Assembly (NCBI GenBank): GCA_011503125.2
Contig: WWBZ02000022.1
Location: 4,402,001 to 4,466,000, forward strand
DNA length: 64,000 nucleotides
Reading direction: 5' to 3'
Source of the DNA: Botryosphaeria dothidea
Lineage: Eukaryota > Ascomycota > Dothideomycetes > Botryosphaeriales > Botryosphaeriaceae
The position numbers were made by a program, and so were the translations under genes. Below, one piece after another: positions 5,594-24,431 of this stretch (positions are counted from its first letter, which is position 1; each line of letters opens with the position of its first letter). The notes beneath the pieces were generated by a model. That model saw nothing but the letters and a program-made list of their open reading frames with translations, searched no databases and was not told the DNA's origin.

Positions 5594-6442
5594 TGTTGCG
5601 CTACGCCACCCTCGCCCGAACCGGAGGGACCACGCGTGTGCTCGATCGGGAAAGGGCGGGCTCGAAGCGGACACGAGGTTTAGGTTTTGTTTGTTTGTTT
5701 TTCTTCTTGGTTTTGTGTGTATTTTGAGAACACGGTGGCTTTCTCGCGTCGGCCGTCTGTTTTTACTTTATTGCTTGGGATGATGCGCGACGGGCCAACA
5801 TCATCGACGCAGGTCTTGGGCAGTGGCAGGATGGAGGCCGCGGTTGTTCGATGGTCTCATAAGGTGAGATGGGCGTGCTTCGGCGCGGCCCACACAGTTC
5901 GTCATTGGGCCCCGCACTGGGCTGGAGCCAGTGGTTGGCATGGCAGGGCGCTGGGGGGGGGGCGTTCGGCAGAAGCGGCGGGTGATGAGGGCGTAATTTC
6001 AGCGTCAATTGATGGGCGAAGGGAGGCCAGCGTCGTCATAGGGGGCCCGGCGTCGAAGGCGGCCGTCGACAGCGAGCGAACGACCCTGAAATTAGGGCGG
6101 CTCGGCAGCGACAAGACGCCAGTTCTCGTTCTCAACACCACTGTCTGCCTCTCCAACGCTGCGCAACGTTTGGTGATGCGCACTGCGGGAAGCACGAATC
6201 TGTCGCGCATTGTAAGTGCACATCCCTGCCCCGCCCTTGGCCGTCGCAGGCAAAGCGCCGCCTGAAACGCGAGTTTCATCGGCGCTCGGTCGCCGTTTGG
6301 TGCCCACGCCGCGAAGGGCACTGGCACCTTGTCTGCCCTACAACCTTGGCCACCGCCCCAAGCCAGCTGCTTTACTATGTCCACGTCGCCCGCTCTTCCA
6401 CTCAGACACGCCCACTGATTCACTCCCTCGCCATCCGCAGCC

Positions 6443-8918
6443 ATGACATCGCAGCAGCAACTGCCTGGCGGCGGCGGCGTACGATCCCTCCGTGCTATGT
6501 TCGAGAGCTCCCATCCCGAGCGCTCTGCCTCCCCTGAACTTCGCGGCCGCTCGCCCACTCCCGGCTCGCCCTCCGTCCGCTCCAGCGAGTCCAATTCGCG
6601 TCCCACCTCCAAGGTGCGCGCCAGCTTCATCTCCGTCGGCCCCTTTGACCCCCCTACCAGCATGCCCGACGACGCCCTCGACAGCCCGGCCGTCGAGAGC
6701 CCGCCCGCCGGCAGTCCTGAGCCCGCCAGTCTCCTCCAGGACTCGCCCGACGGCGCCGGCAGCACTGTCAGCCACCGCCGCGGCAGCATGAGCCTGGATC
6801 CGCACCGCGACTCCGATGCCTTGGAGGAGGTCAAGAAAACCGTGTCGGGCGAGGCCGAGCAGCGCCGCGCCAGCCTCGACGTCCAAGAGACCATTCCCGA
6901 GCAGGCCGTCATGACCGGCCCCAGCAACACGCCCTTCCCCGAGATCAAGGAAAGCGAGGCCATGGGCAGCTTCATCAACAACGAGGGGAACAAGCTCGCG
7001 GACCCCAAGAAATCCAGCGAGCCGGGTCCGAAGGTGGAGGCCACCCAGGAAAATGCGAATAAGGTCCTGGAGGAAGCGACCAAGAACTTGAAGCGCGTTG
7101 AGCTGGCCGCTGAGGAGAGGAACTCGGAAGCCGCCCGCAAGTCATCGTCGGCTTTCCCTGAGCACCCCGCTCCCGCCGCCACTCCCCTCGCCGAAGTGGC
7201 CAAGCAGGAAGTCATGCCGCCTGTCGAGGAACCTACAAAGACCCAGCCGGATAAGAAGACCGATGTGGAAGAGGAGAGCGCTGCCATGAAGCCCTCGGAC
7301 CCGAAGGATGAGAGTGCCGTTTCCAAGGGCGACGCCCTGCCTCCCCCGGTCGAGTCTCTGAAGCCTCTCGGTACTGAGAAGCCTGCGGAGGAGGCGCCTG
7401 CGCCTGTCGTTGAGGAGAAGGCCGAGGACAAGGTCGAGCCTCAGCCTGAGGAGACGGCCAATGCCGCGTCAGAGCCCGCTCCCGAGCCCAAGTCTCCCGA
7501 GAAGCAGGCTGAGCCAGCGAAAGCTGAAGAGGCCAAGCCCAAGTCTCCAGTTCCTCCTCAGACCCCGACTTCGCCGATCGCTTCTCCCAAGTCTACGACC
7601 TCGAAAACCTCCTCGGCCAAGGTGCCCGCGAAGAGGACCAGCAGGACTTCGTTGAAGTCGGCGACTTCCACCTCTGCGCCTAAGCCGCGCGCATCGTCCA
7701 GGCCTGCTGCCGAGAAGAAGAAGGAGGCCGCTCACACCACGCCCCCTTTTACGAAGCCCAGGCCGAAGTCGCCTACGCGCCCCGCTAAGCTTCCTTCTCA
7801 CCTGACGGCGCCCACTGCCGCGTCCGCCGCCAAGCGCGATGCTGAGAAGGCGGAGGAGAAGAAGCCTGCTGCCAGGCCCAAGACCACCACCCCGCGTGCC
7901 CCCGCCGTGGCTTCCAAGACCACCACCGCTGCCGCAAGCAAGACCGCTGCCGATGCTAAGAAAGCCGGCTCGCGCCCCTCCCTGCCTGCGCAAGGTGCCG
8001 CTAAGCGCCCCGAGTCCCGGACTTCCAGGCCCAGCGTCGGTGCCCGTGCTCCTGACGACAGCTTCCTCGCACGCATGATGCGCCCGACCGCTGCGTCCGC
8101 GAGCAAGACCCACGAGAAGAAGGACGAGGCCGTCAAGTCGCCTCCGCATCGCACCGTGTCGACCAAGACCAAGCAAACGAACGGCACCAGCGTTGCCTCG
8201 AAGGCGAAAACAAAGGTTGTGGAGGGTATTGATAAGGCGAAGGAAAAGGTTTTGGATAAGGACACTTCGGAGAAGGAGGAGGGCAGTTCGGCGCCGACCT
8301 TGGAGCCTGCGGCTCCCATCACCGAGAAGCCTACGGAGGAGGAAAAGGCGGCGGCTGCTGAGCAGGATGAGGGCAAGAACACGCCTCCACAGGGTGCGGA
8401 GACTCCAGCGCAGCAGAGCGGGGAAACTATGACGCAAACGCCGGCGGGTATTGAGGGCGGTGTTATTCGGTAAGATAGATTACACTATTCTTCCACAATC
8501 ACTATAACGCATTTTAATTCTTTCTACACCCAATCATCCCGCTATCTTATTTGTCGTTTCCTGCAATTAAGCCTCAAGAACTTCGCCAGGTCGTAGCCCA
8601 ACAAATGATGAAGCCACCCCGCAAATCCGCCAGTGCCACTGCTTCGACGGTGCAACCACGACTTCGCCCCCCACCGCCACCGTCAACGGACCCCGCTCCC
8701 TCCGCAGCTTCAGCACCAGCAGCAACATGACCGCCTACTCTTCCGCGAGCACCACCTTCACCTCTTCGACCGCGCCCACCTCGGTCTTCGGCACGCCCGC
8801 GCCATCGATCGCCGGCTCTTCGACCCCTTCGTCGACCCTTTCCATCTCTGGCGACAAGCCCCCAGCTCCTCGCAAGGGCCGCATCTCGAACTTGGTCGCT
8901 TTCTTCGAGAATAACTAA
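6443..8918 (+). CDS. Large disordered Lys/Ala/Pro/Ser-rich protein with L-x-A-F-E motifs at both ends
   Basis: The first exon, 6443-8469, encodes 675 residues of almost pure low complexity (Lys, Ala, Pro, Ser, Glu). The apparent stop at 8471 lies inside a donor-like CG|GTAAGA, and splicing to an acceptor at 8578 (tcaag) opens 8579-8918 in frame, giving 788 residues. The extra exon is Ser/Thr-rich and ends in KGRISNLVAFFENN. That resembles the N-terminal motif VRSLRAMFES at residues 16-25: both read L-x-A-[MF]-F-E. No folded domain, signal peptide or membrane segment is seen. Fungal databases often label such proteins mucin-like by composition alone; the function is unknown. If the last intron is not used, the protein is 676 residues ending GGVIR. 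The first exon is secure; the second is moderately supported. Confidence 0.7.
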
Positions 8919-10346: not shown

Positions 10347-10874
10347 TCACACCGCATCCTCCCCCTCAACGCCGCCCTCATCGAAGAACGAGCCCGGCTC
10401 CCCCACCTCCACCTTGACCTTCTTGCTCGGGCTCTCAGGCGCCTCATCATCCTCCCCGTCTTCCTCCTCCTCGACCTTGCCGCGCTTGTTGCTGCCGCCA
10501 CGGCCCTTCTTCTTAGCGCTCACCCCGTTGTCCTTGCCCGGCGTCGTCGTCGCGCCGACCGTCTCGGCGGCCAGGATGGCGGCGCCGTTCTTGCGGATCT
10601 TGGCGATGCGCTGGCGGATGGCGTTGCCGGTGACGTCTGCGCGTCTCTTGTGAGCGGGGAAGACGGAGGGAGGGAGGGAGGGAGGGGGGGAGGGAGGGAG
10701 GGGACACTCACTTCCGCCGATCAGCGCGGCGATCTTGTCGTGCTCGGGCTTGCCGAGCTTGATTTCGCAGGCGTCGAGGATGGCGGCAAGGAGCTGGTGG
10801 GAGGGGGGAGGTGAGTGGGTGAGTGGGAGTGAGTGAGGGGAGCTGGGGCGGACCTTGGAGTCTTCGGTGGACAT
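10347..10874 (-). CDS. Myb/SANT-like small protein, tandem family member P1
   Basis: Three exons, 10854-10874, 10712-10793 and 10347-10636, give 130 residues. Exon 2 (82 nt) carries LLAAILDACEIKL and DKIAALIGG; exon 3 begins VTGNAIRQRIAKIRK, which together look like the helices of a Myb/SANT-like DNA-binding domain. A disordered acidic/basic tail follows, with ESPSKKVKVE and a C-terminal SFFDEG. Intron 2 has a good GTGAGT donor, but the first donor (GTCCGC) is weak, and the unspliced frame also stays open, so the 5' model is less sure. Exon 1 (MSTEDSK) lacks the tryptophan found in most members. This is the outermost member at the low-coordinate end of the array, and its intron 2 holds a purine-only tract. 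A nuclear DNA-binding role is inferred. Confidence 0.75.
   Translation of the reverse strand: MSTEDSKVRPSSPHSLPLTHSPPPSHQLLAAILDACEIKLGKPEHDKIAALIGGSECPLPPSPPPSLPPSVFPAHKRRADVTGNAIRQRIAKIRKNGAAILAAETVGATTTPGKDNGVSAKKKGRGGSNKRGKVEEEEDGEDDEAPESPSKKVKVEVGEPGSFFDEGGVEGEDAV
10666..10703 (+). repeat. G/A-only tract, GGGA repeats, inside intron 2 of P1
   Basis: About 38 bases of GAGGGAGGGA-type repeats with a run of seven or more Gs lie within the 75-nt intron. On the transcribed strand this is a polypyrimidine tract, which may help the acceptor; on the plus strand it could form a G-quadruplex. Both are inferences. Confidence 0.7.
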
Positions 10875-11338
10875 TTTGGTTGAGGGGGTTGGCTTGACGA
10901 TGAGGTGTTATTTGTGTGAGGGGCGGGATGCGCTGAGAGCTTGTGTGGTGTTGAGGGATGGCGTGGATGTGAAGCGGCGCGGGTGGTGTTGAGGAAGAAA
11001 GAGGATGGGATGCGGGTGATGTGAAGTGGGACGGCTTTTGTATGTGCGCAGGAACCCATGATGCAATGGGCCACAGCCTGAGCATGTGAGCTCCGCGAGG
11101 CCAATCTCACAAATAATACGGTCACATTAGGGAATTTCCATTTGAAAGCAGCCCATATGAAATCAATTCGAGAAAGCTGGGATATCTAAACTTTCACCAT
11201 GCCAGGAGGCAGATAATCGCAAGCTTTTCCCCAAAACGAAACCGCCCATGCATGTCTGTGGAGATTCCCTTCCTTCCGAGTAAGGGCAAGCAAAGTTTAC
11301 CGGTTTGGCAGCTGGTAGTCAGAGATGTTCTGCGACGG
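10875..11338. other. Spacer between P1 and P2
   Basis: The promoter side of P1 and 3' side of P2. No gene is seen. Near 10900-11000 the plus strand is G-rich and the minus strand C/A-rich, as in the leaders of the other array members. Confidence 0.5.
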
Positions 11339-11921
11339 CTAGACCTCCTCATGAAAGACTTGGGATGCTAAAGCATCGTAGTCCGTGAACTCCTCCTCAT
11401 CGTCGACCTGCTCCTGCTTCAACTTCTTCGTGGGGCTCTCCGGTTCCTTGGCCTCCTCATCGTCGTCCGAAGGCGGCTCATCGTAGCTCTGGAGAGGGCG
11501 TTTGCGAGAAGCCGCCCGGGGCGTCTGCTCCGGGTCGTCGTCAACACCGTTGCCGTTCTTCTTGTTCTTGCGCGGCGTGGTCTTGGACACCTTGGAAGCA
11601 GTCGTCTTTCCCTTTGTAGGTGAGGCGCCGTTGGTGTTGCCCAGCTTCTTCTTGATGTTCCGGAAGCGGTGCTGGATCGAATACCTAGTGAAGCCTCGGG
11701 TTGAAGTGAGTACGTGGTAAAGGCTGGAGGCCCAGAGGGCTTTCTCACCTTCACCCATATGTTCGGCAATCTGCTCGTACTGCTCGTTGTTGATGACCAG
11801 GCCGCAGACCTCCAGAGTGGCCATGAAGAGCTTGACCCATAGTGTCAGCGAAGGCGGTGGGCAGGGAGAGAATCTGGGAGCTCACGCGCTGATCAACCTC
11901 TGCGGTCCAGGCGATTGGCAT
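11339..11921 (-). CDS. Myb/SANT-like small protein, tandem family member P2
   Basis: Exons 11886-11921, 11749-11830 and 11339-11694 give 157 residues; introns are 55 and 54 nt with GTGAGC and GTGAGA donors. Exon 1 encodes MPIAWTAEVDQR, with the Trp expected in helix 1 of a Myb-type domain. Exon 2 (82 nt) carries LFMATLEVCGLVI and EQIAEHMGEG, and exon 3 opens with SIQHRFRNIKKKL. The tail is basic then acidic, with SRKRPLQSYDEPPSDDDEE and ESPTKKLKQE. Exon 2 and its flanking intron phases (0 and 1) match the neighbouring paralogs, and it resembles P3 and P4 most. No homolog of known function is recognised; DNA or chromatin binding is inferred from the fold and basic tail. Confidence 0.85.
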
Positions 11922-12344
11922 TGTGAGATATTGTTGCGGTGACCGGCAGTAGAAGTAATCGATGATGTAGTGTGGAGGAAGGATGTGGCGGGAAGGAATT
12001 GCAGGGGGAGCGCAGATCTTATGCACGGCGGCGCGTGGAGAGCAGGAAAGGCAAGGACACCCTAGACGCAAAGCGGAAAGAGAACCTGGAAAGAGCCCCT
12101 GCGAGTGCTAGAAATTATCTGCAGCAAACCCGGCCAACATATCCTTGTCATGCAGGCAGTCACAGAAAGCATACTGTAGCTGCAGTGCCTACGAGTCGCT
12201 GTCGTTGGAATATGCAATTTGGGTTCATTTGAGCATGTCTTCCAGCAATGAAGTCTATCTATACCTCCGTGAAATACCTCCAGAAGGCGATCTCCGCTGT
12301 TTTGCTTGCTTGAAGAATCTGATGCTACTTCGAAATCACATCAA
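11922..12344. other. Spacer between P2 and P3, with a TATA-like box for P2
   Basis: No gene is seen. On the minus strand a TATA-like GCATAAGA lies at about 12015-12023, roughly 97 bases before the P2 ATG. Similar boxes lie 97-120 bases upstream of P4, P6, P8 and P12. Confidence 0.4.
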
Positions 12345-12846
12345 TTAAACCTCCGCCTCGTGCTTGGTCTTCTTGGTGGGGGACTCTGGCATCTCGGCAT
12401 CAGCGTGGCTCTTCGCTTCGCGCTTGAGCGGCGAAGACCGCGAAGTCTTGACGTTGCCATCGGCCTTGCCCTTTTCACCGCCAGCCTTGGTGGCCTTGCT
12501 CTTCGGAGTAGCACCCTTGGCGGGGGAGGCGTCAGCACCATCGGCAGCCTTGTGCTCCTTCTTGAACTTCTTGAAGCGGTGGCGAAGAGCCTCGGCCGTC
12601 AATCCTGAATGTGACATGAGCAGCCGGAAGCGGAGGGAGGCGAGGTGAGTTTCAGTCTTACCATTGCCCATCTTCTCGGCCATGATCTTGTACTGTTCGC
12701 CGGTGATGGTCAACTCACACACCTCCATCGTGACCAGGAAGAGCTGTGTCGCCGCTGCGTTACTAAAGACCAGAGACAAGATGGTGAGGTCGTGGACGAC
12801 TTACGCGCTCGTTGAGCTCGGGCGTCCACGTGGTACCGCGCGGCAT
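12345..12846 (-). CDS. Myb/SANT-like small protein, tandem family member P3
   Basis: Exons 12805-12846, 12662-12743 and 12345-12604 give 127 residues, with introns of 61 and 57 nt and GTAAGT/GTAAGA donors. Exon 1 is MPRGTTWTPELNER. The 82-nt exon 2 encodes LFLVTMEVCELTI and YKIMAEKMGNG. Exon 3 begins LTAEALRHRFKKFKKEHK, a clear recognition-helix-like stretch of the Myb/SANT type. The tail contains SPAKGATPKSKATK and ends ESPTKKTKHEAEV, a basic cluster that could act as a nuclear localisation signal. It is closest in sequence to P2 and P4, its physical neighbours. The function is unknown beyond the inferred DNA binding. Confidence 0.86.
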
Positions 12847-13277
12847 GATGTCGTCGTGCCGATGATGTTGCTTGTTTATCAGAAGCACTTTTTGTGAAGC
12901 TGTGGCTGGATGGATGAAGAGAGTAAAGAGTGTTGTTGTGGAAACGGATGGTGACAGAAGGGCGGGGTTTAGATCTTGCCCAGCAGGTGAGAGATGCACG
13001 GAGATCACGGCCGCACCGGACCAGGAAACCCCGGACCAGAATGTTTGAACCTTGTCACGCATAACACGGTAGCACGTGGGATGCTTCGCAGGATGAAGAG
13101 CCACTTTGCATGCCAAGCATACGTGTGATGAAGAATGTCTAGTATTTTTGATACGGGACTGTGTCCCGGCTCTTTTCAAGCTGTCTGTCTGCCGAACCAT
13201 GCCAATCCATGCAACCAATGCATTCCAGAACCCAGTGAACTTTTGAGACGCCTTTGAGGTGGTGAAGAAGATCAGAA
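12847..13277. other. Spacer between P3 and P4
   Basis: No gene is seen. The first 150 bases upstream of P3 are the likely promoter and leader, with an AT-rich patch (minus strand ATCTAAACCCC) near 12964-12974. The remainder is the 3' side of P4. Confidence 0.4.
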
Positions 13278-13832
13278 CTACTCTACCTCGTTGTCGAAGA
13301 AGGATCCGTTCGCACCACCATCCTTGGCATCCCCGTGCTTCAGCTTCTTGGTAGGAGACTTGGGCTCCTCAGCATCGTCGCCAGAGGGTGTGCCGGCACT
13401 ATTGGCACTGCGGCGCTTGCGAGGAGAGGTGGTCGTAGTCTTGTCAGGATCGTCGCCATCCTTGGCCTTCTTCTTGCGGCCGCCAGTTTTCTTGGGGGTA
13501 GCCTTGGGAGCATCACCGACCTTGGTCGGAGAGCCGCCACTGGCAGCTTTGGCCCTGATAGCCTTCTGAACGTGCTGGCGGACGCCCTCCATGGTGAAGT
13601 CTTTGTGGGTGAAGTAGGTCAGTGTTGAATGCCTTGAGCAGGAAAGTGGAGTAGTGTCTTACCGTCACCCATCTTCTCAGCGACGGTGGTCCACTGCTCC
13701 TTGCTGAGCTTGACTCCACCAACCTCCATGATGACCATCATGAGCTGCGCCACTGTCAGTACAGGTCAAAGGCAGGTAAGGCGTGATGTGACTTACGCGC
13801 GCTTCGTTCTCGGCGTTCCAGCTAACAGGCAT
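13278..13832 (-). CDS. Myb/SANT-like small protein, tandem family member P4
   Basis: Exons 13797-13832, 13663-13744 and 13278-13600 give 146 residues; introns are 52 and 62 nt, donors GTAAGT and GTAAGA. Exon 1 is MPVSWNAENEAR; exon 2 (82 nt) encodes LMMVIMEVGGVKL and WTTVAEKMGDD, keeping both tryptophans typical of a Myb/SANT core. Exon 3 begins FTMEGVRQHVQKAIRAK. The tail has SPTKVGDAPKATPKK, SPRKRRSANS, EPKSPTKKLKHGD and a C-terminal SFFDNEVE; the same SFFD ending is seen in P1 and P12. Three SP-x-K motifs are present. A role in nuclear DNA binding is inferred, not shown. Confidence 0.86.
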
Positions 13833-14231
13833 TCCGAAGTGTGTGAGGGGCTTTCACAAGAGGTTTTTTGCGTTGGCGAAGCTGGGGTCTGGGAGGGGAG
13901 GTGTTGAGGGAAAGGTTGAGGAGTAGAAGTGAATTGGGGGAAGAGGGGTGGATTTTTATGCCCTGCAAAGCGAGAAAGATCTTGCTTACCCAACATGGAA
14001 TAGTCCGGAACCGTATCAGGAAGTTTACATTGGCCTAAACTACGAGCAGTCCACACAGCGGCAAGAATTCACGGGCGTGGGCCTCGTACTTCCCTAGCGG
14101 TGGAAGTATTTTGGAATTGAATTCGGAGAAGTCTACTTCTGTCTGTCAATGAAACAGAATCTAACAGCAGCTACGAATAGTATCAAATGGCCGTCGAATC
14201 AAGAAAAGTGCGCTTTCACCCGCCAATGGTA
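13833..14231. other. Spacer between P4 and P5, with a TATA-like box for P4
   Basis: No gene is seen. A minus-strand GCATAAAAATCC at about 13951-13962 lies roughly 120 bases before the P4 ATG and is a good TATA candidate. Confidence 0.4.
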
Positions 14232-14902
14232 TTAGGGAAAGTCGTACCAATCGACTTCATTCCTGAAGGACTCCATATCCTCCGAGAAGGAATAAGATTC
14301 CATCTTGGCCTTCTTCGGGTTGGTATTCGACTCGTCATTGGATAACTCAGTATCTACACGGGCACGATTGCTTTTGGAAGCGCCGTTCATGAGGACAGTT
14401 CTGTGGTCATCGCTGGCCTTCGCCTCTTTGTCATCGGAAGGCTCGGCATCGTCGCGGGGATGTTTGCCGAGAGGAGATCTCTTCATGAAGGGAGTTGCGT
14501 CGTGCTCATCGATATCCGCGGCTCCCTTCGTTTTGGCAGGCCCCGCCTGGCTCGCCCCGGCGCTCGTGGCAGTGGCTTGTCGTCGGGCGGCTTGGAGGAC
14601 TCTTTTCCTCACATTGTAGACATGTTGCCTGATTCGACGTGGCGGTGGCCACCCTGTGCAGAATGGTGTGAGCCAGAATGTGCAGAACAAGAGGAAAGCG
14701 CCCTCACCTTCGCCCATGCCCTCAGAGATCTTCGCGCAGTTCTCGTCGTTTAGTTCAATACCCAAGCCCGCCCTCGAGAAAATGGCACAGATGAGCTAGC
14801 TCGAATCAGTTGGATCCGGATCGTAATTGGAATAGGCAGTCTTACGCGTCGGTCTGTCTCGGGCTCCCAGAAGCGAAAATCGTCTTCGTTTGAGGTGTAC
14901 AT
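14232..14902 (-). CDS. Myb/SANT-like small protein, divergent tandem family member P5
   Basis: Exons 14846-14902, 14708-14795 and 14232-14653 give 188 residues; donors are GTAAGA and GTGAGG. The first exon is longer than usual (19 codons) but keeps WEPETDRR. Exon 2 is 88 nt, two codons longer than in the other members, encoding LICAIFSRAGLGIEL and AKISEGMGEG. Exon 3 begins WPPPRRIRQHVYNVRKRV. The tail lacks the SPTKK motif of its neighbours, having NPKKAKMES instead, and ends in acidic and aromatic residues. It is still a clear family member by intron phase, position and the MGEG boundary. It is the most divergent intact copy. Confidence 0.8.
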
Positions 14903-15542
14903 GGTTAGAGCTGTGGTGATGGAATATTCGGTGCCAATATGAAGGCGGCTAGAGTAGTGGTGACTGTGACTGTATATCTGGGACGCTGGCAGAGCAAAGA
15001 AAGAAGCCTCTGAAAGGCGGTTCGCTGTAGCGGTGCTCTTTCGAGTGGCCGTTAGTATTAGTATTAGTATGTGGTGGGAAGGTGCAAGCCCGAGCGTCTG
15101 GGCGACTGCCATTCCTGCGCTGCGTCGTTCGAGGTTACCAACACCGGAAGGGCCACCCACGCAATTCGCTAGTCAATCAGAGCTTGAGATCAGTCAAGGG
15201 TCCGGCGGCGGCTTACAGCTGACATGCTCGAGAAGTTCAGTGCGGGCTCGGAATTTTGAAAGCGCAGAAACGGGCCTGGAATTCATCCTACAGACCCAAG
15301 CTGTTTGTCAAATTCACTCACGCATACCTTCATTCTGGCTGCATGGGCCCCTTCTTCTGCTCTTCGTCAATCTTTTGCGCTTGGAAAGCTTGGGATCCGC
15401 ACTGTACACTTCGACATAGTTCCCAGCTTGCCGCTTTCGAGAAGATGCTTGCCTCCGTCCCAGATTCACCGTGATCCTGGTTCTTCTCAGAGCGGTGCTG
15501 TTGCCTGCACCTCCAACCACAACGCTCATCTCACCCGGGCAT
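14903..15542. other. Spacer between P5 and P6
   Basis: No convincing gene is seen. The minus strand has AGATATACAG near 14970, about 70 bases before the P5 ATG, a possible TATA element. Short plus-strand frames at 15256-15742 lie opposite the P6 tail and look incidental. Confidence 0.4.
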
Positions 15543-16163
15543 TCAGACCTCCTCGGGAATTTCCAGCGAACGCCTGTTGTCGGAGCTTGACACGTAGCTC
15601 AAGTCGATTACCCGCACCTTCTTTGTGGGGCTTTCCGGAAGTCCATACGGGTCGATTGGGTCTTCCTCGTCTTCTTCAGTGTCCGACAGCGTATAACTCG
15701 AAATCACACGCTTTCGCGGTGAAGTTCGCTTTGCAGGTGTGACAGGAGGAGTAACATTCTCTTTTTGAGGAGAATCTTCCTCAGGGTACTTCTTGATGGA
15801 TTCAATATCCTGGCCCTCTTTTTTGATGAGTCCACGGGACGTTTCGTTGTTCCTGGAAGTCGCCCCGCGGTGTTTGTCCCTCAGCCTAAAGACGGCCATC
15901 CGGACGGCGTGAGGTTTGTCACCTACACAGAAATAGAAAAATATTAGGCGCTTGGCGGCGAGCGAGGTATCAGCAATTCTTGTCTGGATGCTATACTTAC
16001 CGTTTCCCATGGTCTCGGCCAGCTTCGCCCATACGCCCTTGTTGGCTGTGGGATTGAGAAGGTCGATCGCGGCCAGAAGCAACTGTTCAGTGGTCAGGAG
16101 TTTCCGGCTCGCTTTTAGAAACTCAAAATCTGATGCTGCACTTACGTCCGTTTGGTTCACCAT
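15543..16163 (-). CDS. Myb/SANT-like small protein, tandem family member P6
   Basis: Exons 16146-16163, 16001-16082 and 15543-15922 give 159 residues; donors are GTAAGT for both introns (63 and 78 nt). Exon 1 encodes only MVNQTD, so the first helix and its Trp are missing, while the 82-nt exon 2 (LLLAAIDLLNP, WAKLAETMGNG) and exon 3 (KPHAVRMAVFRLRDKH) are well kept. The tail has SPQKENVTPPVTP, SPRKRVISSYTLSDTEEDEE and ESPTKKVRV. It belongs to a subgroup with P8, P9 and P10, which all share LNP in the second helix. The short first exon may mean partial loss of the domain or a different upstream start that I could not find. Confidence 0.8.
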   Translation of the reverse strand: MVNQTDVSAASDFEFLKASRKLLTTEQLLLAAIDLLNPTANKGVWAKLAETMGNGKYSIQTRIADTSLAAKRLIFFYFCVGDKPHAVRMAVFRLRDKHRGATSRNNETSRGLIKKEGQDIESIKKYPEEDSPQKENVTPPVTPAKRTSPRKRVISSYTLSDTEEDEEDPIDPYGLPESPTKKVRVIDLSYVSSSDNRRSLEIPEEV

Positions 16164-17029
16164 GGTTCAGAACTTCTCAAACACTTCGTATACAAGAAAG
16201 AGACCAAATATTCGAGAACAAAAACTGACGAAATCGGGGTCAAATTTTGTTCAGGGAAGCCCTTTCAATATATTATGTCGTGGAAGGCATTATTGTTGTT
16301 AGGGGGAAGCTTCCACTTCGCGCAGCAACGGAAGCGCAGGAGAAAGATCATCCAGAACATGCAGGTAGAAGTGGGGCATTGTGATCTGTGTCAAATCATG
16401 TATACCCTCAAAACACCTGTTGTGTAAAAAGAAAATGAATATCGTTTGATCCGATGTGTCACATTCTTGGAGCCGCACCCATGCAGCTCCTGCCCGAATG
16501 TTCCATCTCGTTGTGAGCATGCATTGACCTGTGGTTGACCAAACCGTGATACTGCCACGGCAACCGTGTCCAGGCCATTTATCCCTAAACATGCCCCAGT
16601 CACTTGCAACATGAAAGTGAGAATGAGTCACAGTCGGCAAGCGGCTCCCGATTTAGTAATGCGGAGATAAGAGAAAAAGCAAGTAGCCGTGAGACGCCTT
16701 GACCTTGTTGTTTGACGCACAACTTTCTCCTTACGCACGATAGTCCCGCAATGCCTTTTCGGCTCGTTTTCCTATTGGTGCTGCTTATGCTTACTTGGCA
16801 CTGGCTATGAACCCCGTTTAACTTTCACGATACAGGAACGGATGATGCAAGTGTGCCAGTTGCGTTGTGACTTGACAGAAGCAACTGGGGCATTTTCACA
16901 ATTTGATACGGAACAAAATTATGAGACGATCTGCCCGTACATTTCAGAGCCAAATGAGTCCATTGCAATCAACCATTGATTCACTTTTTTTTATTTACTG
17001 TCCCAATGAACACCGAGGGATTCCTGAAG
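16164..17029. other. Spacer between P6 and P7
   Basis: About 870 bases with no gene seen. The end near P6 carries a minus-strand ACATAATATATTG at 16266-16278, roughly 105 bases before the P6 ATG. The rest is AT-rich with only short frames and no recognisable remnant of another family copy. Confidence 0.45.
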
Positions 17030-17614
17030 CTAAATATGCCACTGCTCATCTGGAGTCAACGAATCCGGACTACGTGAAATATCGCCCTCAAGCTTGACGG
17101 CCTTTCCAGTCTTCTTTATCTTCGTTGGACTTTCCGGAACAACATCATCCTCAGAGTCAGAATCGCTAAGTTCTGCATAAGACTTCAATGGGCGTTTGCG
17201 GGATGAGAATCTCTTGGGCGGAGATGCATCAATTTTCGCACTTTCATCGGGGCCGAAACTCTCCGACTTGATAGCGTTGCTCTTCTTTGGAGAAGCACTG
17301 GGGCTCTCTCTGTTCTTTCTCAGCCTTCCAAGCTGGAGTTCAACCGCTTTAGCTGTGATGCCTGCACCGAAACATGAGCATGTAGGCGCTCCTGACCGGG
17401 TATTGTAACGTGTATGGAATTTCAAGAAAATCGCCTACCTTCCCCCATTTCTTCCGCAGGCTTTCTATATAGATCCATTGTGCATTTGGGTTTGGTCTTC
17501 TGGAAGACAGCCAAGAGGAGCTACGTCGGCTCCTTGTGAGAAGATGGATTTGACATAAAGTGCAATCTGCCGACCTACACGCATGCGAGCTTCCGTATTC
17601 CAATTATAAGGCAT
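17030..17614 (-). CDS. Myb/SANT-like small protein, tandem family member P7
   Basis: Exons 17579-17614, 17439-17520 and 17030-17361 give 149 residues; introns are 58 and 77 nt with GTAGGT and GTAGGC donors. Exon 1 is MPYNWNTEARMR; exon 2 (82 nt) reads LLLAVFQKTKPKC and YRKPAEEMGEG, with a Pro where other members have Ile in the IAE motif, which could break that helix. Exon 3 starts ITAKAVELQLGRLRKNRE. The tail carries SPSASPKKSNAIKSE, SSRKRPLKSYAELSDSDSE and ESPTKIKKTGK. The frame is open throughout, so it is treated as intact, but the helix-breaking Pro may affect function. Confidence 0.8.
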
Positions 17615-18195
17615 ACCGAGAGGTGATCTAATGTGTCTCGATCTGGAGGACTTTTGAAGAAGAAGTAGCTGGATGTTGATGGAATGCGGATAAGGAAGCA
17701 AGCCACGGATTGAGTGGAAATCAGTTCAGATACCGGCTGCGGAGAAGAGTGCCAGAGTCAGTCTTGTAAGTGGCGAGCCCGATGCTTCTCAGAATACAAA
17801 GCAGTTCTCGCGCTCCTAGCCAAAGCTAAGTAAGGTCGATAAGGCTGGCGTGCCGCACACCCGGCGCTCCGGTTATGCTCGACAGGCCTCGCTTGTAGAA
17901 CCTTTATTCTGTCAACCTTAAGATGTGATGCTTGGCCAAACTTCCTTCGATGACTTGAACTCACTCTGGATCAATCGATCATCGCGCCCTAGAGGTGTTT
18001 GGTGGCGTGGTGTTATCTTTCGGAGGACTTTCAGCAAGAAGGTTCGACTTAAACTCCATGCCGTGAAGTCTTTGGCGTGGTTAAGTTGAAGGCTGTACAG
18101 CCGGACTTTCCGCAGCAACAAACCATGTGAAGAATAGCGCAAGTGTCGTAGTGCAAATTTAATCAGTGTAGAAAAACCCAAGCCCAGTTAAGCTA
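17615..18195. other. Spacer between P7 and P8
   Basis: No gene is seen. The stretch has only short frames and no remnant of the family domain that I can recognise on either strand. Confidence 0.4.
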
Positions 18196-18741
18196 TCAAG
18201 GACATTCTTCGCCGGACTGCTCCTTAAGCGGCAAAACTTCTTTAGCCTTCAAAGCTCTTCTTTCAATTTTGACCTTCTTCACTGGGATCCCCAGGATGTC
18301 GCTCTCGTCCTCGGATGTGTAAAGATCCGCCAATTTCATCATTTTCCGTTTCTGAGAGGCTTCTTTCTGCTTGACCGGAGTTTCTTGGCGCTGTCCTTCG
18401 GGACTGCTGTAGCTTCTCCATTCCCCCGGACTCCTTTTTCGGGGAAGCGGTGCCGCTACCGGAAACGCGCTTTTTCATGAAAGTGACATGGACGGCGATA
18501 GCATTCCCGGTCAGGCCTTTGAAGGACCCATTTCAGTATGCTAGCCGTATATGGCCTCGCCATGGTTACTTACCAGCTCCCATGAACTCCGCAATCTTGT
18601 CCCAATTCTCCAGACCAACGGTAGGATTGAGGACACGTATGAAAGCCAGAAGCAGCTGTATATTGTGAGGATCAAACTATGAGCGGGCAGAAATTCTCAG
18701 CTTACGCGGGCTTCTGCCTTCGCATCCCACACAAAAGGCAT
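18196..18741 (-). pseudogene. Myb/SANT-like tandem family member P8, frameshifted
   Basis: Exons 18706-18741 (MPFVWDAKAEAR) and 18574-18655 (LLLAFIRVLNP, WDKIAEFMGAG) are intact with good donors, and exon 3 starts at 18516 with LTGNAIAVHVTFMKKRV. In that frame translation stops at 18263 with no family tail. The expected tail is found in the next frame: SEDESDILGIPVKKVKIE, ending at 18196, matches the position and character of the DTEED and ESPTKKVK blocks of P6 and P9. A one-base change between about 18425 and 18450 would explain this. If translated as is, the product would be 123 residues with an unrelated C-terminus. A sequencing error cannot be excluded. Confidence 0.7.
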
Positions 18742-19298
18742 GGTTTCCGGCGTGATGATCGTAGAAAGAATGTCTTCCGTTCGTGCCAATGCTAGTAGAA
18801 GAACAAATAAACACAGACCTAAGAAAGACGTAGATTTATGGCCCCGACCTTGAAGCCGAGAAGTGGGGTATGGTGCATCATTGGTCTCGACCAGAGGACC
18901 ATACTTATCACTGAGGTTGGTATAAGGTTTGGCGTTCCGGTGCTCATTCCATGCAAACATACAGGGGGTATTGTAGCCGGTGGCTAGCAGAAATGGCCTT
19001 TATCGATTGCATCATCATGGGAAGTGGAAGAATTCATCCGGAGTAAGTGTTTTACATTTGTGGTGACGAATACGTCCAGACAAATGCTTTAAGTCTTCAT
19101 CGAATCTTTCTCCGACCCGCTGACGGGAACATCTCATTGGGACCAACCTCCAATTGCAGCAACCTTATTCATACCGACGAGGCAAAACAAAGCTACCAAC
19201 AAGAATGATCAACGCCCGGAAGTTCGAAGAGCCGACGTAGACAACCCTTGCGCTCCAACCTTATTAGGACCACCTCAGTCATCTGTGGTCCGATCCTC
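18742..19298. other. Spacer between P8 and P9, with a TATA-like box for P8
   Basis: No gene is seen. The minus strand has GCCATAAATC at about 18835-18843, roughly 97 bases before the P8 ATG. Confidence 0.4.
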
Positions 19299-19814
19299 TC
19301 AATCGGGGCCCACGTCCTCTGACTTTACCTTCTTTGTAGGGCTTTCCGAAACAATATACTCATCCTCTTCCGTATCTTCTGATTCAACGTATTCCTGAAC
19401 AGTTCGTTTGCGGGAAGGCAGTATCCTCACAGGATTTGGATTCTTTCCGAGAATATTCTCAGCATTTTCTTGTTCGTCGCTCTTGACAGGAGGATCAGGA
19501 GTCCCCGCGGCTTTGGTTCCGAAGTGCTTCTTTTTCAGCAATTTTACATGCTGGCGAATTGCCTCCCCACTCAGGCCTGGAACTCGCGTTAGTGTTGCAC
19601 CTACACCATACAAAGAAGAACAGAAGTGTAACTACCATAACCAACTGCTTTGGCAATGTTGTTCCATTGGCCTCTGTTGAACCTTGGATTGAGGATGTCA
19701 ATCATGGAGAGCAGGAGCTGCAGCCCTGTTATCTTTCAAAAACGAAAACAAAGCAGACATGTTGCTCACCCGCGCGTCTGCCTCCGAGTTCCACACGAAT
19801 TTCATCTTTGCCAT
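19299..19814 (-). CDS. Myb/SANT-like small protein, tandem family member P9
   Basis: Exons 19770-19814, 19636-19717 and 19299-19576 give 134 residues; donors are GTGAGC and GTAGTT. The first ATG gives MAKMKFVWNSEADAR, and the second ATG at 19805 would place Trp at position 5 as in P2, P7, P8 and P12, so either start is possible. Exon 2 (82 nt) encodes LLLSMIDILNP and WNNIAKAVGYG. Exon 3 opens LSGEAIRQHVKLLKKKH, one of the clearest recognition-helix stretches in the array. The tail has SRKRTVQEYVESEDTEEDE and ESPTKKVKSED. It is closest to P8 and P6. Confidence 0.83.
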
Positions 19815-19952
19815 CTTGTGTTGGAGTACGATGGGGTAAGTCCACTCAAGCGTCTGAACAAGACTGGAAAGTAGGAGGAAGCAGTCGAACCGTCAATTTA
19901 CCCAATGTCTAGCGGCAAACACTACAAACTTTGAAAGCGGGGTAAATATGAG

Positions 19953-20529
19953 CTACACTGCCTCCTCATCACTCCGCTCGGTAGGCTTTGAAGGGAGTGA
20001 AGAAAGTTTGTGATCGTCAATCTTGACCTTCTTCGTAGGACTCTCCGGGATCACCAAATCCTGTTCCCCCTCCGTTTGTTCCGCTTCGGCGTACGTTTTA
20101 AATGCTATCTTTCGAGACGTCGGCCTAGGCGTTACCGCTTCCTTTACAAAAGGGTCTTCAACGCTATCATTTTCTTTCTTGACCGGGCTCTTCACATGAG
20201 AGCGGGGGTTTGAATTCATGTGCGAGTGACACTTCTTTTTTATCCTTCTGACATGCCATCGAACGGCTTCTCTAGTTGTCCCTTCGGAAAAGTCAGCTAA
20301 AGATGCAAAGTGTGCAAAGAAAGCGGAGGAAATGCTAAGGTAGGCTGACCTTGGCCCATGATCTGGGCTACTTGAGCATAAGTACGGCGGTTGATTGCGG
20401 GATTGAGGACCTCTACGAGAGCAAGGAGGAGCTCCAGCTTGTTAACAAAATGCAATCCTCATCTGGAATTAGAGTCGTTCGACGTGCCTGAAGATCCTGT
20501 TCTGCTGTACATGCAATGCCGGAGGACAT
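19953..20529 (-). pseudogene. Myb/SANT-like tandem family member P10, probably without a usable first exon
   Basis: Exon 2 (20350-20431, 82 nt) encodes LLLALVEVLNP and YAQVAQIMGQ, and exon 3 (19953-20281) begins TTREAVRWHVRRIKKKC and keeps an open tail with ESPTKKVKIDD. Upstream, the only exon-1-like sequence is an ATG at 20529 followed by a TAEQDLQAR stretch in which the conserved Trp is Cys. No GTAAG-type donor in phase 0 follows; the nearest GT is GTCGAA in another phase. The second intron also has a weak donor (GTCAGC). The gene therefore looks like a copy that is losing its 5' end, although an unrecognised distant first exon is possible. Confidence 0.65.
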
Positions 20530-21008
20530 GGCTATTCTTTGCGAGTGAGTACGTTGGGGCAATCAGTGGAGAGAAGTCTTGCGAAAGAGGAAATCTACTC
20601 AAGATGTCCTTTTTACAAAACGCGAGGCTGAACTTTTCGTAAGCTGCCAGCTTGAGTAGTTTAACTGATGTCATTGATAGGCCGGCGTTTGGTGCTCGGG
20701 CAGCCAGTCAAGCAACCCGCGATAAACCAGAGTCTTGTGGAGTCAGGAAGCTTCTGCAAGTTTAAAGTAAGGAGTCTCAAGGGTGCAGAGTCAGTCCATG
20801 CTGCCCTCGTAGCGAAAATCCCGGGAAATCTGTCTCAGAATTTAAGTACCGGAAATCTATCCATCATGAGAGTCCGCCATATCGTGAACGCGCAGTGACC
20901 AAATTGCACCGATTTCGGACCTGAAATGCAAGCAAAATACCCCTGTTCAAGCCCAACCGGCCAGGCATGAACGCCAAAGAAGCGCAATCCAGAGCAGTAC
21001 CAAGCCTT
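20530..21008. other. Spacer between P10 and P11
   Basis: No gene is seen. Frames are short and no further domain remnant was recognised. This stretch marks a return from the AT-richer middle of the array to the GC-rich P11. Confidence 0.4.
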
Positions 21009-21710
21009 TCACACCTCCTCCGGATCAGCCACGGTATCGACGTCAGTCTCACTCAGAATCTCACCGCCACCAGAAGCGCTCTTGACCGGAGGCTCCGCCT
21101 CATCGTTCTCCCGGCCATCCTGCTCAGCCTCCTCCCGAACCTTCTTCGCGAGGGCGGCGAACTCGTCGTCAGCGCCCTCGTGCTCCTCGTCCGTCTCCGG
21201 CTCCTGGTACGAGCGCTTGCGGCCAGCGGTGCGGACGCTCTCGCGCTTGACGGACGGAGAGTTGAAGGCGATGCTCTCGTCGTCGCTGATGAGCTCGTCC
21301 TTGACCTTCTTGGCCTTGCCGGTGCTGCGCCTGCCGATGCCGCTGCGGCCGCCGCCGCGCGGAGTGAGCGGGACGGTGGTGGCCGGGATGACCTTGACGG
21401 CGCCGCCGTCGAAGATGCCGGCGGCCTTCTTGCGCGCGGCGCCGAGGCGGTGCGAGATGCTCTGGGACTTGGGGTCTGCGATGGCGTCAGCAGTTGATCG
21501 GTGGAAGTGAGGGTGGTCGCGTGGACGCACCGAGACCCATGGCGAGGTTCATCTTCTTGAGCACGTCACCGGAGAACTTGAGGTCGAACACGTTGAGCAC
21601 GAGGCCGAAGAGCTGGTGGAGCAGCGCGTCAGTCAGGACCTTGGAAGTGAGGTGAGATGGCATCTTACCTTCGCGTCGGCTTCTGTGTCCCATTTCATGG
21701 TGGGAGCCAT
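21009..21710 (-). CDS. Myb/SANT-like small protein, tandem family member P11
   Basis: Exons 21669-21710, 21531-21612 and 21009-21475 give 196 residues, the longest of the array; donors are GTAAGA and GTGCGT. Exon 1 is MAPTMKWDTEADAK, exon 2 (82 nt) LFGLVLNVFDLKF and LKKMNLAMGLD, exon 3 begins KSQSISHRLGAARKKAAG. With P12 it forms a subgroup: both have a GD-x-L pattern in helix 2 and lack the second Trp. The tail is long and acidic with GRKRSYQEPETDEEHE and an SPSVKRES motif rather than SPTKK. Codon use is GC-rich, like P1 and P12. An inverted-repeat cluster lies about 200 bases upstream. Confidence 0.83.
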
Positions 21711-22626
21711 CTTTGATGATGATGGCGAGCGTTATGCTCTGGTTGAGATTGATTGTAGCAGTAGAGGTAGACGAGGTTGTGTTGTTTGGATCGGGATGTG
21801 TGGTGGGTAGTTTGGAAGAGATGTGGCGCAGAAGAAATAGAAGAGCGTCAGACTTGGAGGCAAGATCTAAGCTGCATTGGGAAGGATGGATAGGACGCCA
21901 GAAAATGAGAACGTGAGATCCTCTACGTGAGAATCTCACGTTCTCAATTCCATTTTGCTGTATCTTCCTGTAATAATTCACGTTACCATGGTATTGTAGC
22001 AATGCCTACCTGATGATTTGAAAAGATGTTTTCCTGCCTGTCCGAACATTCCATCCTGACCAATTTTCGTGGCGTTTTCACTCGTCCAGCGCTCTACACA
22101 GCGTATTGTGAAGCACTTCCTAAATGACGTGATACGTAGCTCAATCCTCAGGCACTCCCATACCACGGTTCACGTAGGCAGGGTGGTGCAACAGCATTAA
22201 TAGATAAGGGAGAGGGCGAGTGGGAAGTCAATGGTTTGAAGAAGCTATGGTCAGAGCGGAACTTTGTAACGCAGGGGAAAACGCCTATCGGAGAGAGCTC
22301 CGCATCCCTGCGCCGTCGGAGCTGCAGGTCCCAGGAAAGCATGGGGTTGAAACAAACTTCCCGTTGTTAGTGCGGGGATGGCATGGGCTGAGGTACTCCG
22401 CGGGCGTAAACTCATAAGCGTTGCTACAGCAATGTGCATCCGAGGAAAATGTACAGTGTACGTCGTGATAAGTATCCATTGATTCTTTTGCTTTTGCCAG
22501 AGCATTCCGTCTACCTGTAAACCAGCCAATCGGCTAGAGACGCGAGAACTCTGATTGTCTGAAGCTGATGCTCAGACCAAAGACTCTCCAACATGGAAAG
22601 ACATCCGAGCGCCGCTGGAAAGACAA
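21711..22626. other. Spacer between P11 and P12
   Basis: No gene is seen. The P11-proximal part is the likely promoter and leader and includes the ACGTGAGA inverted-repeat cluster at 21907-21945. The remaining 650 bases have only short frames. Confidence 0.45.
21907..21945 (-). promoter_or_regulatory. Cluster of inverted ACGTGAGA motifs upstream of P11
   Basis: A 13-base sequence, GAGAACGTGAGAT, is repeated in perfect inversion at 21933-21945. Between them lies a further ACGTGAGA that forms an 8-base palindrome with the right arm around one A. This gives three copies of the same core within 39 bases, about 200 bases before the P11 ATG. It could be a binding site for a dimeric regulator or simply a hairpin; the role is inferred. 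Confidence 0.4.
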
Positions 22627-23208
22627 TCAGACTACATCGTCGCCCAAGCCCTCCGCATCGACCTCATCGTCGAAGAAAGACGCCTCCTGCTTGATCTCGC
22701 CCCACGGCATACGAACCCTCTCCTCACTTTCCGATTCGTCGACCGGCGCCTTGAGCTTCGGGGTCTTGGACTTGGCCTTCTTCTTGATCGGGCTCTCCTG
22801 GTCATCGCTGAGGGCATCCTCGCCTGGCATATTCTTCCGCTTGGTGCCACCCTTGGTGCTCCTCGGGGTCTTGGGGGTGGCAGGAGCCGAGCCGTTGGTG
22901 CCGTTGGTGCCGATGGCAGCGGCAGCCTTCTTCAGCCTGAGGACATGCAGAGGAATCGACTGGCCAGAGCATTCTGCGGGGATGACAGCGTTAGTATGTT
23001 CTGTTGGAGTTTGGTGGAAGATGGCGACTCTCACCCGGGCCCATGAATGCGTTGAGCTGCTCAAGCTTGTCGCCGCTCATCTTGATGTCGTAGACGTGAA
23101 GGATTCCAAGCAGCAGCTACGTGACTGTCAGTGAGACTGTTGAAAATAGGAGGAATTACTGAGAGAATTTACCTTGGCGTCTGCCTCAGGGGTCCATTTG
23201 ATTGGCAT
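22627..23208 (-). CDS. Myb/SANT-like small protein, tandem family member P12
   Basis: Exons 23173-23208, 23035-23116 and 22627-22973 give 154 residues; introns are 56 and 61 nt with GTAAAT and GTGAGA donors. Exon 1 is MPIKWTPEADAK, exon 2 (82 nt) LLLGILHVYDIKM and LEQLNAFMGPE, exon 3 begins GQSIPLHVLRLKKAAA. The tail has TPKTPRSTKGGTKRKN, ESPIKKKAKSKTPKLK and an ASFFDDEVD near the C-terminus, the same SFFD ending as P1 and P4. A CATAAAAG box lies about 100 bases upstream of the ATG. It is the last member at the high-coordinate end of the array and pairs with P11 by sequence. Confidence 0.85.
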
Positions 23209-23884
23209 CTTGACGTTGTTGAGTGGTGGTCTGTTGAGTATGTAGTCGGTGAAAGTGATATTTGCGCAGAAGAAGCAGGGCGGAATAGACGAGGAAAGTG
23301 AGGCTTTTATGTGGCAGCAAGACCTGAAATCTGGATCTGGAAGGAAGCGACTAGGCACCGGCTTGCAAAATATGATAGTGAAGTGAAGTCCAAATACGAG
23401 AAGAAAAACCGCCACTTATTAATTCTTCTTTACAAAGATGTTTGAACCGCAGACTCCGGAGTCGTCTCAGTGGCATGTAGGCCTCTTTCCTATAATCTTC
23501 CGCATGTGCTTTCAGTTGCTTGGGGCTTTAATCAAGCTCCTATGGATCTTGACACAGCATATTGCAGAGAAAGACGACTTGCCAATGGAAATCCGCATGA
23601 GAAATGAACTCGACAGACTCCTCGTCAAAAGAGCATCTCCTCAACGAAACAAGACGGATATCCGATGCCGAAAGGCAGCATTGCCCATGATCATCGCTGT
23701 CGTCGTATCGTTATCGTCCACCGCGCCCTCGAAGAAAACACCGCTGACATAATCGCACACCAAACCCAATCCAGCAACCCTCCGTCCCAAACTCCGCCGA
23801 TGTCCCAATAACCCGCATCACCGCACGCCTCTTCCCGCAACAACCACCACACCACCACCACCGCGCCGCCAATTCTCCACAACC
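23209..23884. other. Divergent intergenic region between P12 and bL36m
   Basis: The P12 side has minus-strand CACATAAAAGCC at 23301-23312. A 104-codon plus-strand frame at 23438-23752 has no motif and is not called. The last 120 bases are C/A-rich and lead to the bL36m ATG. Confidence 0.45.
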
Positions 23885-24431
23885 ATGCTCGCCCGCACCC
23901 TCCTCATCCCGCTCCGGCGGACCCTTCTCGCGGCGCCCGCCGCCGTGCCTCGCCTCGCCTCCGCCACCACGCAATCTCAAACGCGCGCCCTCTCGGTTTG
24001 GCGCTTGCCCGCCCGCCCGGCGCTCACGACGACCGCGACAGCGCTCCTCCAGCAGCAGGTCCGCGGGATGAAGGTGCGCAGCAGCGTCAAGAAGCTGTGC
24101 GACGGGTGCAAGGTACGTGCGCCGTCGACAGGCCCGCCTGGTCGGCAGAGGACAAGAGAGAGAGCGAGCGAGGAATTGGAAAGCTGACGGCAAGGACAGA
24201 GCGTGCGGAGGAAGGGCAAGCGCTACGTGTACATCATCTGCAGCAAGAACCCAAAGCACAAGCAGAGGTACGTTGATCGAGCGAGGGGGGGAGGGAGGGA
24301 GCGGAGGAGAGGAAGCTGTCCGGAGCTTTCTTCTCCCCACCTCTCCGCACCCCCAATTGCATGCGATGAGGCCATTGGGCTTGGGAGGGAGCACAAAAAG
24401 CTGACGTGTTGGAATCAACAGGCAAGGTTAA
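23885..24431 (+). CDS. RTC6: Mitochondrial large-subunit ribosomal protein bL36m
   Basis: Exons 23885-24112, 24200-24267 and 24422-24431 give 101 residues; both donors are GTACGT. Residues 1-61 are a basic, hydroxylated mitochondrial targeting sequence. From Met62 the sequence is a complete bL36 core: MKVRSSVKKLCDGCK, VRRKGKRYVYIIC and the ending NPKHKQRQG. The zinc ligands typical of the family are present (Cys72, Cys75, Cys90, His96). bL36 stabilises the 23S-type rRNA near the factor-binding region of the large subunit. The last exon has only ten coding bases (G CAA GGT TAA) but completes the invariant KQRQG end, which strongly supports the model. The yeast equivalent is Rtc6. Confidence 0.95.

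What the first reader, a model, noticed from the sequence alone, without database searches (positions are those of the whole stretch)
10347..23208. Tandem array of twelve paralogous Myb/SANT-like genes on one strand
Seen directly: twelve consecutive minus-strand loci with the same plan (short exon with W-x-x-E, an exon ending MGxG, an exon opening with a basic amphipathic helix, then a disordered basic tail), uninterrupted by any other gene for 13 kb. Inference: each protein is a small nuclear DNA- or chromatin-binding factor and the array arose by local duplication. I know of related single fungal genes by pattern, but not a described function for such an array.
Basis: partly seen in the sequence, partly recalled or inferred. 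Interest (0 to 1): 0.9.

Follow-up and report, generated by a model that had tools for sequence, protein, structure and literature searches.

The report
Twelve-gene array of Myb-like fungal proteins
A plant-infecting fungus carries twelve side-by-side, strongly diverged copies of a small gene whose product looks like a nuclear DNA-binding protein; relatives of the gene occur in many filamentous ascomycete fungi, but I found no description of the array or of what the proteins do.

Summary
Twelve three-exon genes lie head to tail on the minus strand at exactly 10347-23208, sharing intron phases (0 and 1), a three-helix N-terminal domain and a disordered tail. Leave-one-out profiles recover 12 of 12; 0 of 1000 shuffles each do as well. 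The host is Botryosphaeria dothidea: g3, g9 and g12 are GTA08_BOTSDO04733, 04737 and 04739. AlphaFold gives three helices for the two members tried; helix 3 is basic in 12 of 12. Seven of 12 tails carry [ST]-P-x-K-[KR]-x-[KR], resembling a CDK site inside a nuclear import signal. No member reaches a Pfam cut-off; Myb is the family most often matched below it (4 of 12). Relatives occur in several ascomycete classes. Diplodia has two members near each other on one contig, so a cluster probably predates that split. One Botryosphaeriales clade is rejected (p 0.010, few columns). The middle genes (g6-g10) look worn: lower GC3, a frame disruption in g8, a GC donor in g10. Most likely: CDK-gated, Myb-like DNA-binding proteins expanded by tandem duplication. 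Binding, localisation and expression were not tested.

The parts
22627..23208 (-). g12, three exons (23208-23173, 23116-23035, 22973-22627), 154 aa; = GTA08_BOTSDO04739
   Evidence: Spliced model; 100% match P0003; leave-one-out E 9e-18
21009..21710 (-). g11, three exons (21710-21669, 21612-21531, 21475-21009), 196 aa
   Evidence: leave-one-out E 2e-11
19953..20529 (-). g10, three exons; exon 1 has C in place of W and needs a GC-AG intron; likely exon 2 start 20431
   Evidence: leave-one-out E 8e-16
19299..19814 (-). g9, three exons (19814-19770, 19717-19636, 19576-19299), 134 aa; = GTA08_BOTSDO04737
   Evidence: 100% match P0080; AlphaFold model
18263..18741 (-). g8, three exons; domain intact, frame disrupted within exon 3 so the usual tail lies in another frame
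   Evidence: leave-one-out E 7e-20 (first 75 residues)
17030..17614 (-). g7, three exons (17614-17579, 17520-17439, 17361-17030), 149 aa
   Evidence: leave-one-out E 2e-13
15543..16163 (-). g6, three exons; exon 1 short, without W-x-x-E, 159 aa
   Evidence: leave-one-out E 2e-10
14232..14902 (-). g5, three exons (14902-14846, 14795-14708, 14653-14232), 188 aa; lowest leave-one-out score of the 12
   Evidence: leave-one-out E 4.9e-7; close copy P0006 (SLS57_011299, B. dothidea) seen
13278..13832 (-). g4, three exons (13832-13797, 13744-13663, 13600-13278), 146 aa; groups with Macrophomina MPH_07345
   Evidence: tree (100/99)
12345..12846 (-). g3, three exons (12846-12805, 12743-12662, 12604-12345), 127 aa; = GTA08_BOTSDO04733
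   Evidence: 100% match P0017; AlphaFold model
11339..11921 (-). g2, three exons (11921-11886, 11830-11749, 11694-11339), 157 aa; groups with g3 and Diplodia SLS58_005109
   Evidence: tree (100/98)
10347..10874 (-). g1, three exons; exon 1 short, without W, 130 aa
   Evidence: leave-one-out E 6e-11

Best explanation
The array is an old tandem expansion of a family found in many Pezizomycotina: small (about 13-21 kDa) Myb-like, probably nuclear, DNA-binding proteins. Each has an N-terminal three-helix domain whose basic third helix would contact DNA. A disordered tail carries up to two basic clusters (S..[RK]KR and S-P-T-K-K-x-K). I infer that these import the protein into the nucleus and that CDK phosphorylation of the S-P-x-K serine, inside the import signal, gates import or DNA binding with the cell cycle. 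With a single small domain and no enzyme, each would act as an accessory regulator or chromatin-associated factor rather than a stand-alone activator. Copies arose by local duplication on one strand, diverged strongly, and now undergo birth and death, with the outer genes kept and the middle ones wearing. Shown: gene structures, homology, predicted fold, charge, motifs, wider distribution. Inferred: DNA binding, nuclear location, CDK control, regulatory role.
For: Twelve matching gene structures and leave-one-out homology 12 of 12. Three-helix models for the two members tried, domain pLDDT 78-89 (g3) and 84-96 (g9). Helix 3 net charge +3 to +6 in 12 of 12 array members and +2 to +6 in 27 of 27 chosen relatives. 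The motif [ST]P.K[KR].[KR] is in 7 of 12 array tails (mean 0.05, maximum 2 in 2000 shuffles) and 49 of 75 relatives (pattern chosen after seeing sequences). A stricter DNA pattern for E-S-P-T-K-K-x-K occurs 3 times in the 51.7 Mb genome, all three in the array (3 of its 12 genes), 0 in the reversed control. Sub-threshold Myb hits (PF00249) in 4 of 12 array members, best E 0.0034, and in 6 of 54 of a wider set. Myb domains rank first in both Foldseek lists. Adjacent copies are more alike (34.6% against 29.1%, p 0.0033). Relatives in several classes. A canonical copy and an intronless relative lie elsewhere in the genome.
Confidence: 0.6

Rival explanations
1. The domain is SANT-like: a protein- or histone-tail-binding module of chromatin complexes, not a DNA reader.
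For: Small single-domain proteins with acidic stretches in the tail; sub-threshold Myb and Myb/SANT-like Pfam hits do not separate the two.
Against: Helix 3 is basic in 12 of 12 and in 27 of 27 sampled relatives, which fits DNA contact; SANT helix 3 is usually not basic (recalled).
Confidence: 0.2
2. The array is mostly decaying: a few outer genes work and the rest are relics of past duplication with no function of their own.
For: g6-g10 have GC3 0.49-0.62 against 0.65-0.89 for the other seven; g8 has a frame disruption; g10 needs a GC donor and lacks W; g6 lacks W. Supported groupings with other genera in the tree involve g2/g3, g4 and g11/g12 only (30 of 90 relatives used).
Against: The other eleven models stay open through domain and tail (only g8's exon 3 was read in all three frames). 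The low GC3 may partly be regional: introns of g6-g10 are also AT-richer. Somewhat changed copies of g5, g6, g7, g9, g10 and g12 occur in other records (P0006, P0005, P0082, P0083, P0013, P0009). A Neofusicoccum protein carries two tails of this kind (P0084).
Confidence: 0.3
3. The proteins are part of genome defence or self-recognition, diversified by an arms race with transposons or by strain recognition, like other tandem DNA-binding gene clusters.
For: Strong divergence between copies, birth-and-death look, tandem layout.
Against: Nine ORFs elsewhere in the window gave no transposase or incompatibility domain in Pfam, though one has an RNase H match; no RIP signature here. Nothing tested here links the proteins to repeats.
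Confidence: 0.1

Closest known systems
PF00249 Myb_DNA-binding (c-Myb repeat type)
   Same: Three-helix domain of about 50 residues with a first W and a basic third helix; sub-threshold match over most of the profile (g3: residues 6-55 to profile 3-45 of 46, E 0.012).
   Different: Below the curated cut-off (g3 16.2 against 24.4 bits); one or two of the three classical tryptophans at most; one domain only; a M-G-x turn between helices 2 and 3.
PF22980 Myb_DNA-bind_8 (fungal Myb-like)
   Same: Fungal, single small domain; the member P0090 also carries an S-P-T-K-K-R-K tail and matches the array profile weakly (E 1.7e-5 among 90 proteins).
   Different: None of the 12 array proteins matches it at E 1; the genome's own PF22980 matches lie elsewhere (C29 and C8 over the cut-off); the C29 one reads through the domain without an intron.
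Pezizomycotina entries named hypothetical or Myb-like domain-containing (e.g. Xylona P0027, Aspergillus P0041, Macrophomina MPH_07345 P0004)
   Same: Same domain and often the same tail motif; where a model kept its introns (P0059, P0064, P0070) or DNA was read (C8 copy) intron 1 falls at the same place and intron 2 between helices 2 and 3 (by eye).
   Different: Many (10 of 27 aligned) have W-P in helix 2 and P-T-x-R-A-I-x-E-R in helix 3. Whether they are clustered in their genomes could not be tested; names seen give no function.
MADF (PF10545) and homeodomain folds
   Different: No array protein matches either family in Pfam at E 1; two of the 54 wider-set proteins match MADF sub-threshold.

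Membership tests
Myb/SANT superfamily (PF00249) | Score above the curated Pfam cut-off | tested here: not met
   4 of 12 match with E up to 1, best E 0.0034; bits seen for g3 16.2 against cut-off 24.4. The per-member bits of the other three were not printed
Myb/SANT superfamily (PF00249) | Compact three-helix fold | tested here: met
   g3 helices 9-22, 29-39, 45-62; g9 helices 10-24, 30-40, 46-61; predictions, 2 of 12 members
Myb/SANT superfamily (PF00249) | Significant structural match to a solved Myb domain | tested here: inconclusive
Myb/SANT superfamily (PF00249) | Regularly spaced tryptophans | tested here: inconclusive
   First W in 9 of 12; a second W in helix 2 in g4, g6, g8, g9; a third not seen by eye
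Myb/SANT superfamily (PF00249) | DNA or histone binding | not testable with these tools
   Basic helix 3 only
PF22980 Myb_DNA-bind_8 | Score above the curated cut-off (27 bits) | tested here: not met
   No array member listed at E 1; four non-array relatives score E 0.0098-0.029, 14.1-15.6 bits
Pezizomycotina small Myb-like family (uncurated) | Profile homology over the domain | tested here: met
   Array profile matches Aspergillus, Exophiala, Hortaea, Colletotrichum and lichen relatives (found)
Pezizomycotina small Myb-like family (uncurated) | Same two intron positions | tested here: met
   12 of 12 in the array; C8 canonical copy and retained introns in P0059, P0064, P0070, read by eye; most relatives not testable
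Pezizomycotina small Myb-like family (uncurated) | S/T-P-x-K-K/R-x-K/R tail | tested here: inconclusive
   7 of 12 array members and 49 of 75 relatives

The most novel reading that the evidence does not exclude
The array is an ancient, still turning-over bank of paralogous DNA-binding proteins, kept on one strand in one place since before Botryosphaeria and Diplodia split. Each member reads a different DNA site and most are switched together by CDK at the shared tail. That would be a fungal counterpart of clustered, fast-diversifying DNA-binding gene families of animals.
Probability: 0.12. Interest if true: 0.75.

Novelty: new variant of a known kind. Interest (0 to 1): 0.45.

Why it matters
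The array points to a family of small, probably nuclear proteins in many filamentous ascomycetes that no Pfam model captures at its cut-off in the members tested, and for which I found no function in print (search listings, most of them capped). Twelve diverged copies side by side give natural variants for testing what the domain binds and how the S-P-T-K-K-x-K switch works. Tandem expansion of a probable regulator family in a fungus is unusual to my knowledge (recalled, not counted here).

Tried and rejected

Six Botryosphaeriaceae or B. dothidea papers were searched for terms, and only passages were seen: 'Myb' has 0 hits in the six; 'tandem' has 0 in the four on comparative genomics; BOTSDO0473 and BOTSDO0474 have 0 in the two of three BOTSDO papers that I opened (the third, PMC9771998, was seen in the listing only). 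PMC3998117, a survey of fungal transcription factors, was searched for terms too (Myb twice, in general remarks). No supplement was read.

Rows dropped: of 90 proteins fetched, 15 that are copies or fragments of B. dothidea-like array genes were left out of the relatives counted, leaving 75, some of them fragments. The tree used 30 of the 90 plus the 12; the charge count used 27 of the 90 plus the 12. The folding alignments used 54 (A4) and 29 (A5) of the 90. The motif patterns were chosen after seeing the sequences.
Full report
WHAT IS THERE. The minus strand of 10347-23208 holds twelve genes in a row, numbered here g1 (10874-10347) to g12 (23208-22627). Each was spliced by script from the window DNA. 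All have three exons, a first intron in phase 0 and a second in phase 1, introns of 50-78 nt, and proteins of 123-196 aa. Gaps between a stop codon and the next start run from 138 to 916 bp.

IS IT MORE THAN CHANCE. A profile built from eleven domains finds the twelfth in 12 of 12 cases, with E-values from 4.9e-7 (g5) to 3.1e-23 (g2). None of 1000 shuffles per gene reaches the real score. The full profile against 1302 six-frame ORFs of the window hits the array; the best hit outside has E = 4. Pairwise domain identity is low, 13-46%. Neighbours average 34.6% and non-neighbours 29.1%, and 33 of 10000 random orders do as well (p 0.0033).

HOST. g12, g3 and g9 are identical to GTA08_BOTSDO04739, 04733 and 04737 of Botryosphaeria dothidea, on a contig of 4,853,375 bp, which is the length of the window's contig C18. 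The array lies about 428 kb from the contig end. Seven tag numbers cover ten of my models, so if tags run in order along the contig at least three of these genes have no model of their own in that annotation (inference).

FAMILY. No array protein was found above a Pfam cut-off. Four of 12 show sub-threshold PF00249 hits, best E 0.0034, but one member has a better hit to an unrelated family (PF11705, E 0.0012). In a wider set of 54, PF00249 appears in 6, PF22980 in 5 (led by one true member, P0090) and the unrelated PF17464 in 3. Protein searches gave 16 hits (E up to 0.001), 69 (E up to 10) and 17 (E up to 10), with overlaps; they reach only proteins sharing short exact words, so they are lower bounds. 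Organisms named include Diplodia, Lasiodiplodia, Macrophomina, Neofusicoccum, Aplosporella, Hortaea, Aspergillus, Exophiala, Colletotrichum (E 0.046, stronger), Biscogniauxia and many lichen fungi; that these span several classes of Pezizomycotina is recalled. Some gene models keep introns in the protein, which shows the same intron places as in the array (P0059, P0064, P0070; read by eye).

ELSEWHERE IN THE GENOME. Eleven own-genome searches and a profile check of eight loci show a canonical copy at C8 near 107.4 kb with intron 1 at the same place and a second intron after helix 2 (family profile E 2e-10 among 371 ORFs; DNA, introns by eye), an intronless relative at C69 near 560.4 kb (E 9.4e-8) and a weaker one at C8 near 286 kb (E 3.5e-5). 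PF22980 matches over the cut-off lie at C29 (one) and C8 (two). The strict tail pattern for E-S-P-T-K-K-x-K occurs in 3 places, all in the array, and 0 in the reversed control.

EVOLUTION. In a tree of 42 domains (80 columns; the program warns of few columns) g2 and g3 group with Diplodia SLS58_005109 and SLS55_001473 (100/98), g4 with Macrophomina MPH_07345 (100/99), and g11/g12 with Lasiodiplodia DBV05_g9059 and Diplodia SLS58_005106 (93/93, short of the program's mark). The two Diplodia intermedia genes are three tags apart and both list a longest contig of 367,986 bp, so a cluster spanning the g2/g3 and g12 types probably exists there too. The Neofusicoccum protein P0084 carries two tails in one model, which looks like two neighbouring genes fused by annotation (inference). 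Holding all Botryosphaeriales rows as one clade is rejected (p-AU 0.010 with and 0.014 without Aplosporella), so two or more old lineages probably stand in the array. Few columns and long branches limit this.

WEAR IN THE MIDDLE. GC at third positions is 0.65-0.89 in g1-g5, g11 and g12 but 0.49-0.62 in g6-g10; introns of g6-g10 are AT-richer too (0.43-0.48 GC), so part of this may be regional. g8 has its domain in one frame and its tail motif in another; g10 needs a GC donor and has C for W; g6 and g1 lack the W. RIP indices are not raised.

TAIL. [ST]P.K[KR].[KR] is in 7 of 12 array tails (shuffle mean 0.05, maximum 2 of 12 in 2000 rounds) and in 49 of 75 relatives. S..[RK]KR is in 6 of 12 and 38 of 75; a terminal [DE]xV in 7 of 12 and 16 of 75; [ST][FY]FD in 3 of 12 and 8 of 75; each exceeds its 1000 shuffles. 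These patterns were chosen after seeing the sequences, and the relatives were found with profiles that include the tail, so the shuffles only rule out composition. That [ST]-P-x-K is the CDK consensus and K-K-x-K a nuclear import signal is recalled knowledge.

MECHANISM. The best reading is a small Myb-like DNA-binding protein imported by its basic tail and gated by CDK at the serine beside it. Fold, charge and motif are computed; binding, import and gating are inferred.

LITERATURE. Eight full-text searches ran, most with capped listings. No listed title or abstract start concerns this array or family, and the six locus names tried occur in no held paper. Term searches inside PMC13403568, PMC8905617, PMC8929176, PMC9363843, PMC8012773 and PMC8336260 found no Myb mention; only passages were seen. 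Papers outside the open library were not searched.

Noticed in passing
window 1449-4226 (+) and upstream exon: ABC transporter with ABC_tran and ABC2_membrane domains, left of the array (ORF 1449-3986).
   Followed up: partly
window 24814-26800 (-): TLDc-domain protein (E 6e-33), possibly Rtc5-like (recalled), right of the array.
   Followed up: partly
window about 23880-24300 (+): Looks like mitochondrial ribosomal protein bL36, read by eye from the sequence, not tested.
   Followed up: no
window 6419-8473 (+): 684-codon open frame of a P/A/K/E-rich protein with no Pfam match.
   Followed up: no
G000:C8:375512-375825 (L015, L016): Two PF22980 Myb-like matches about 0.1 kb apart on one strand, perhaps two exons or repeats of one gene or a small cluster.
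   Followed up: partly
G000:C69:560436 onward (L018): Intronless relative of the array family with a T-P-S-K-R tail and S-F-F-F-D near the C-terminus; possibly a retrocopy.
   Followed up: partly
array g1, g4, g12 C-termini: Recurrent S-F-F-D near an acidic C-terminus, the SFFD-type pattern also in 8 of 75 relatives; could be an activation or docking motif.
   Followed up: partly
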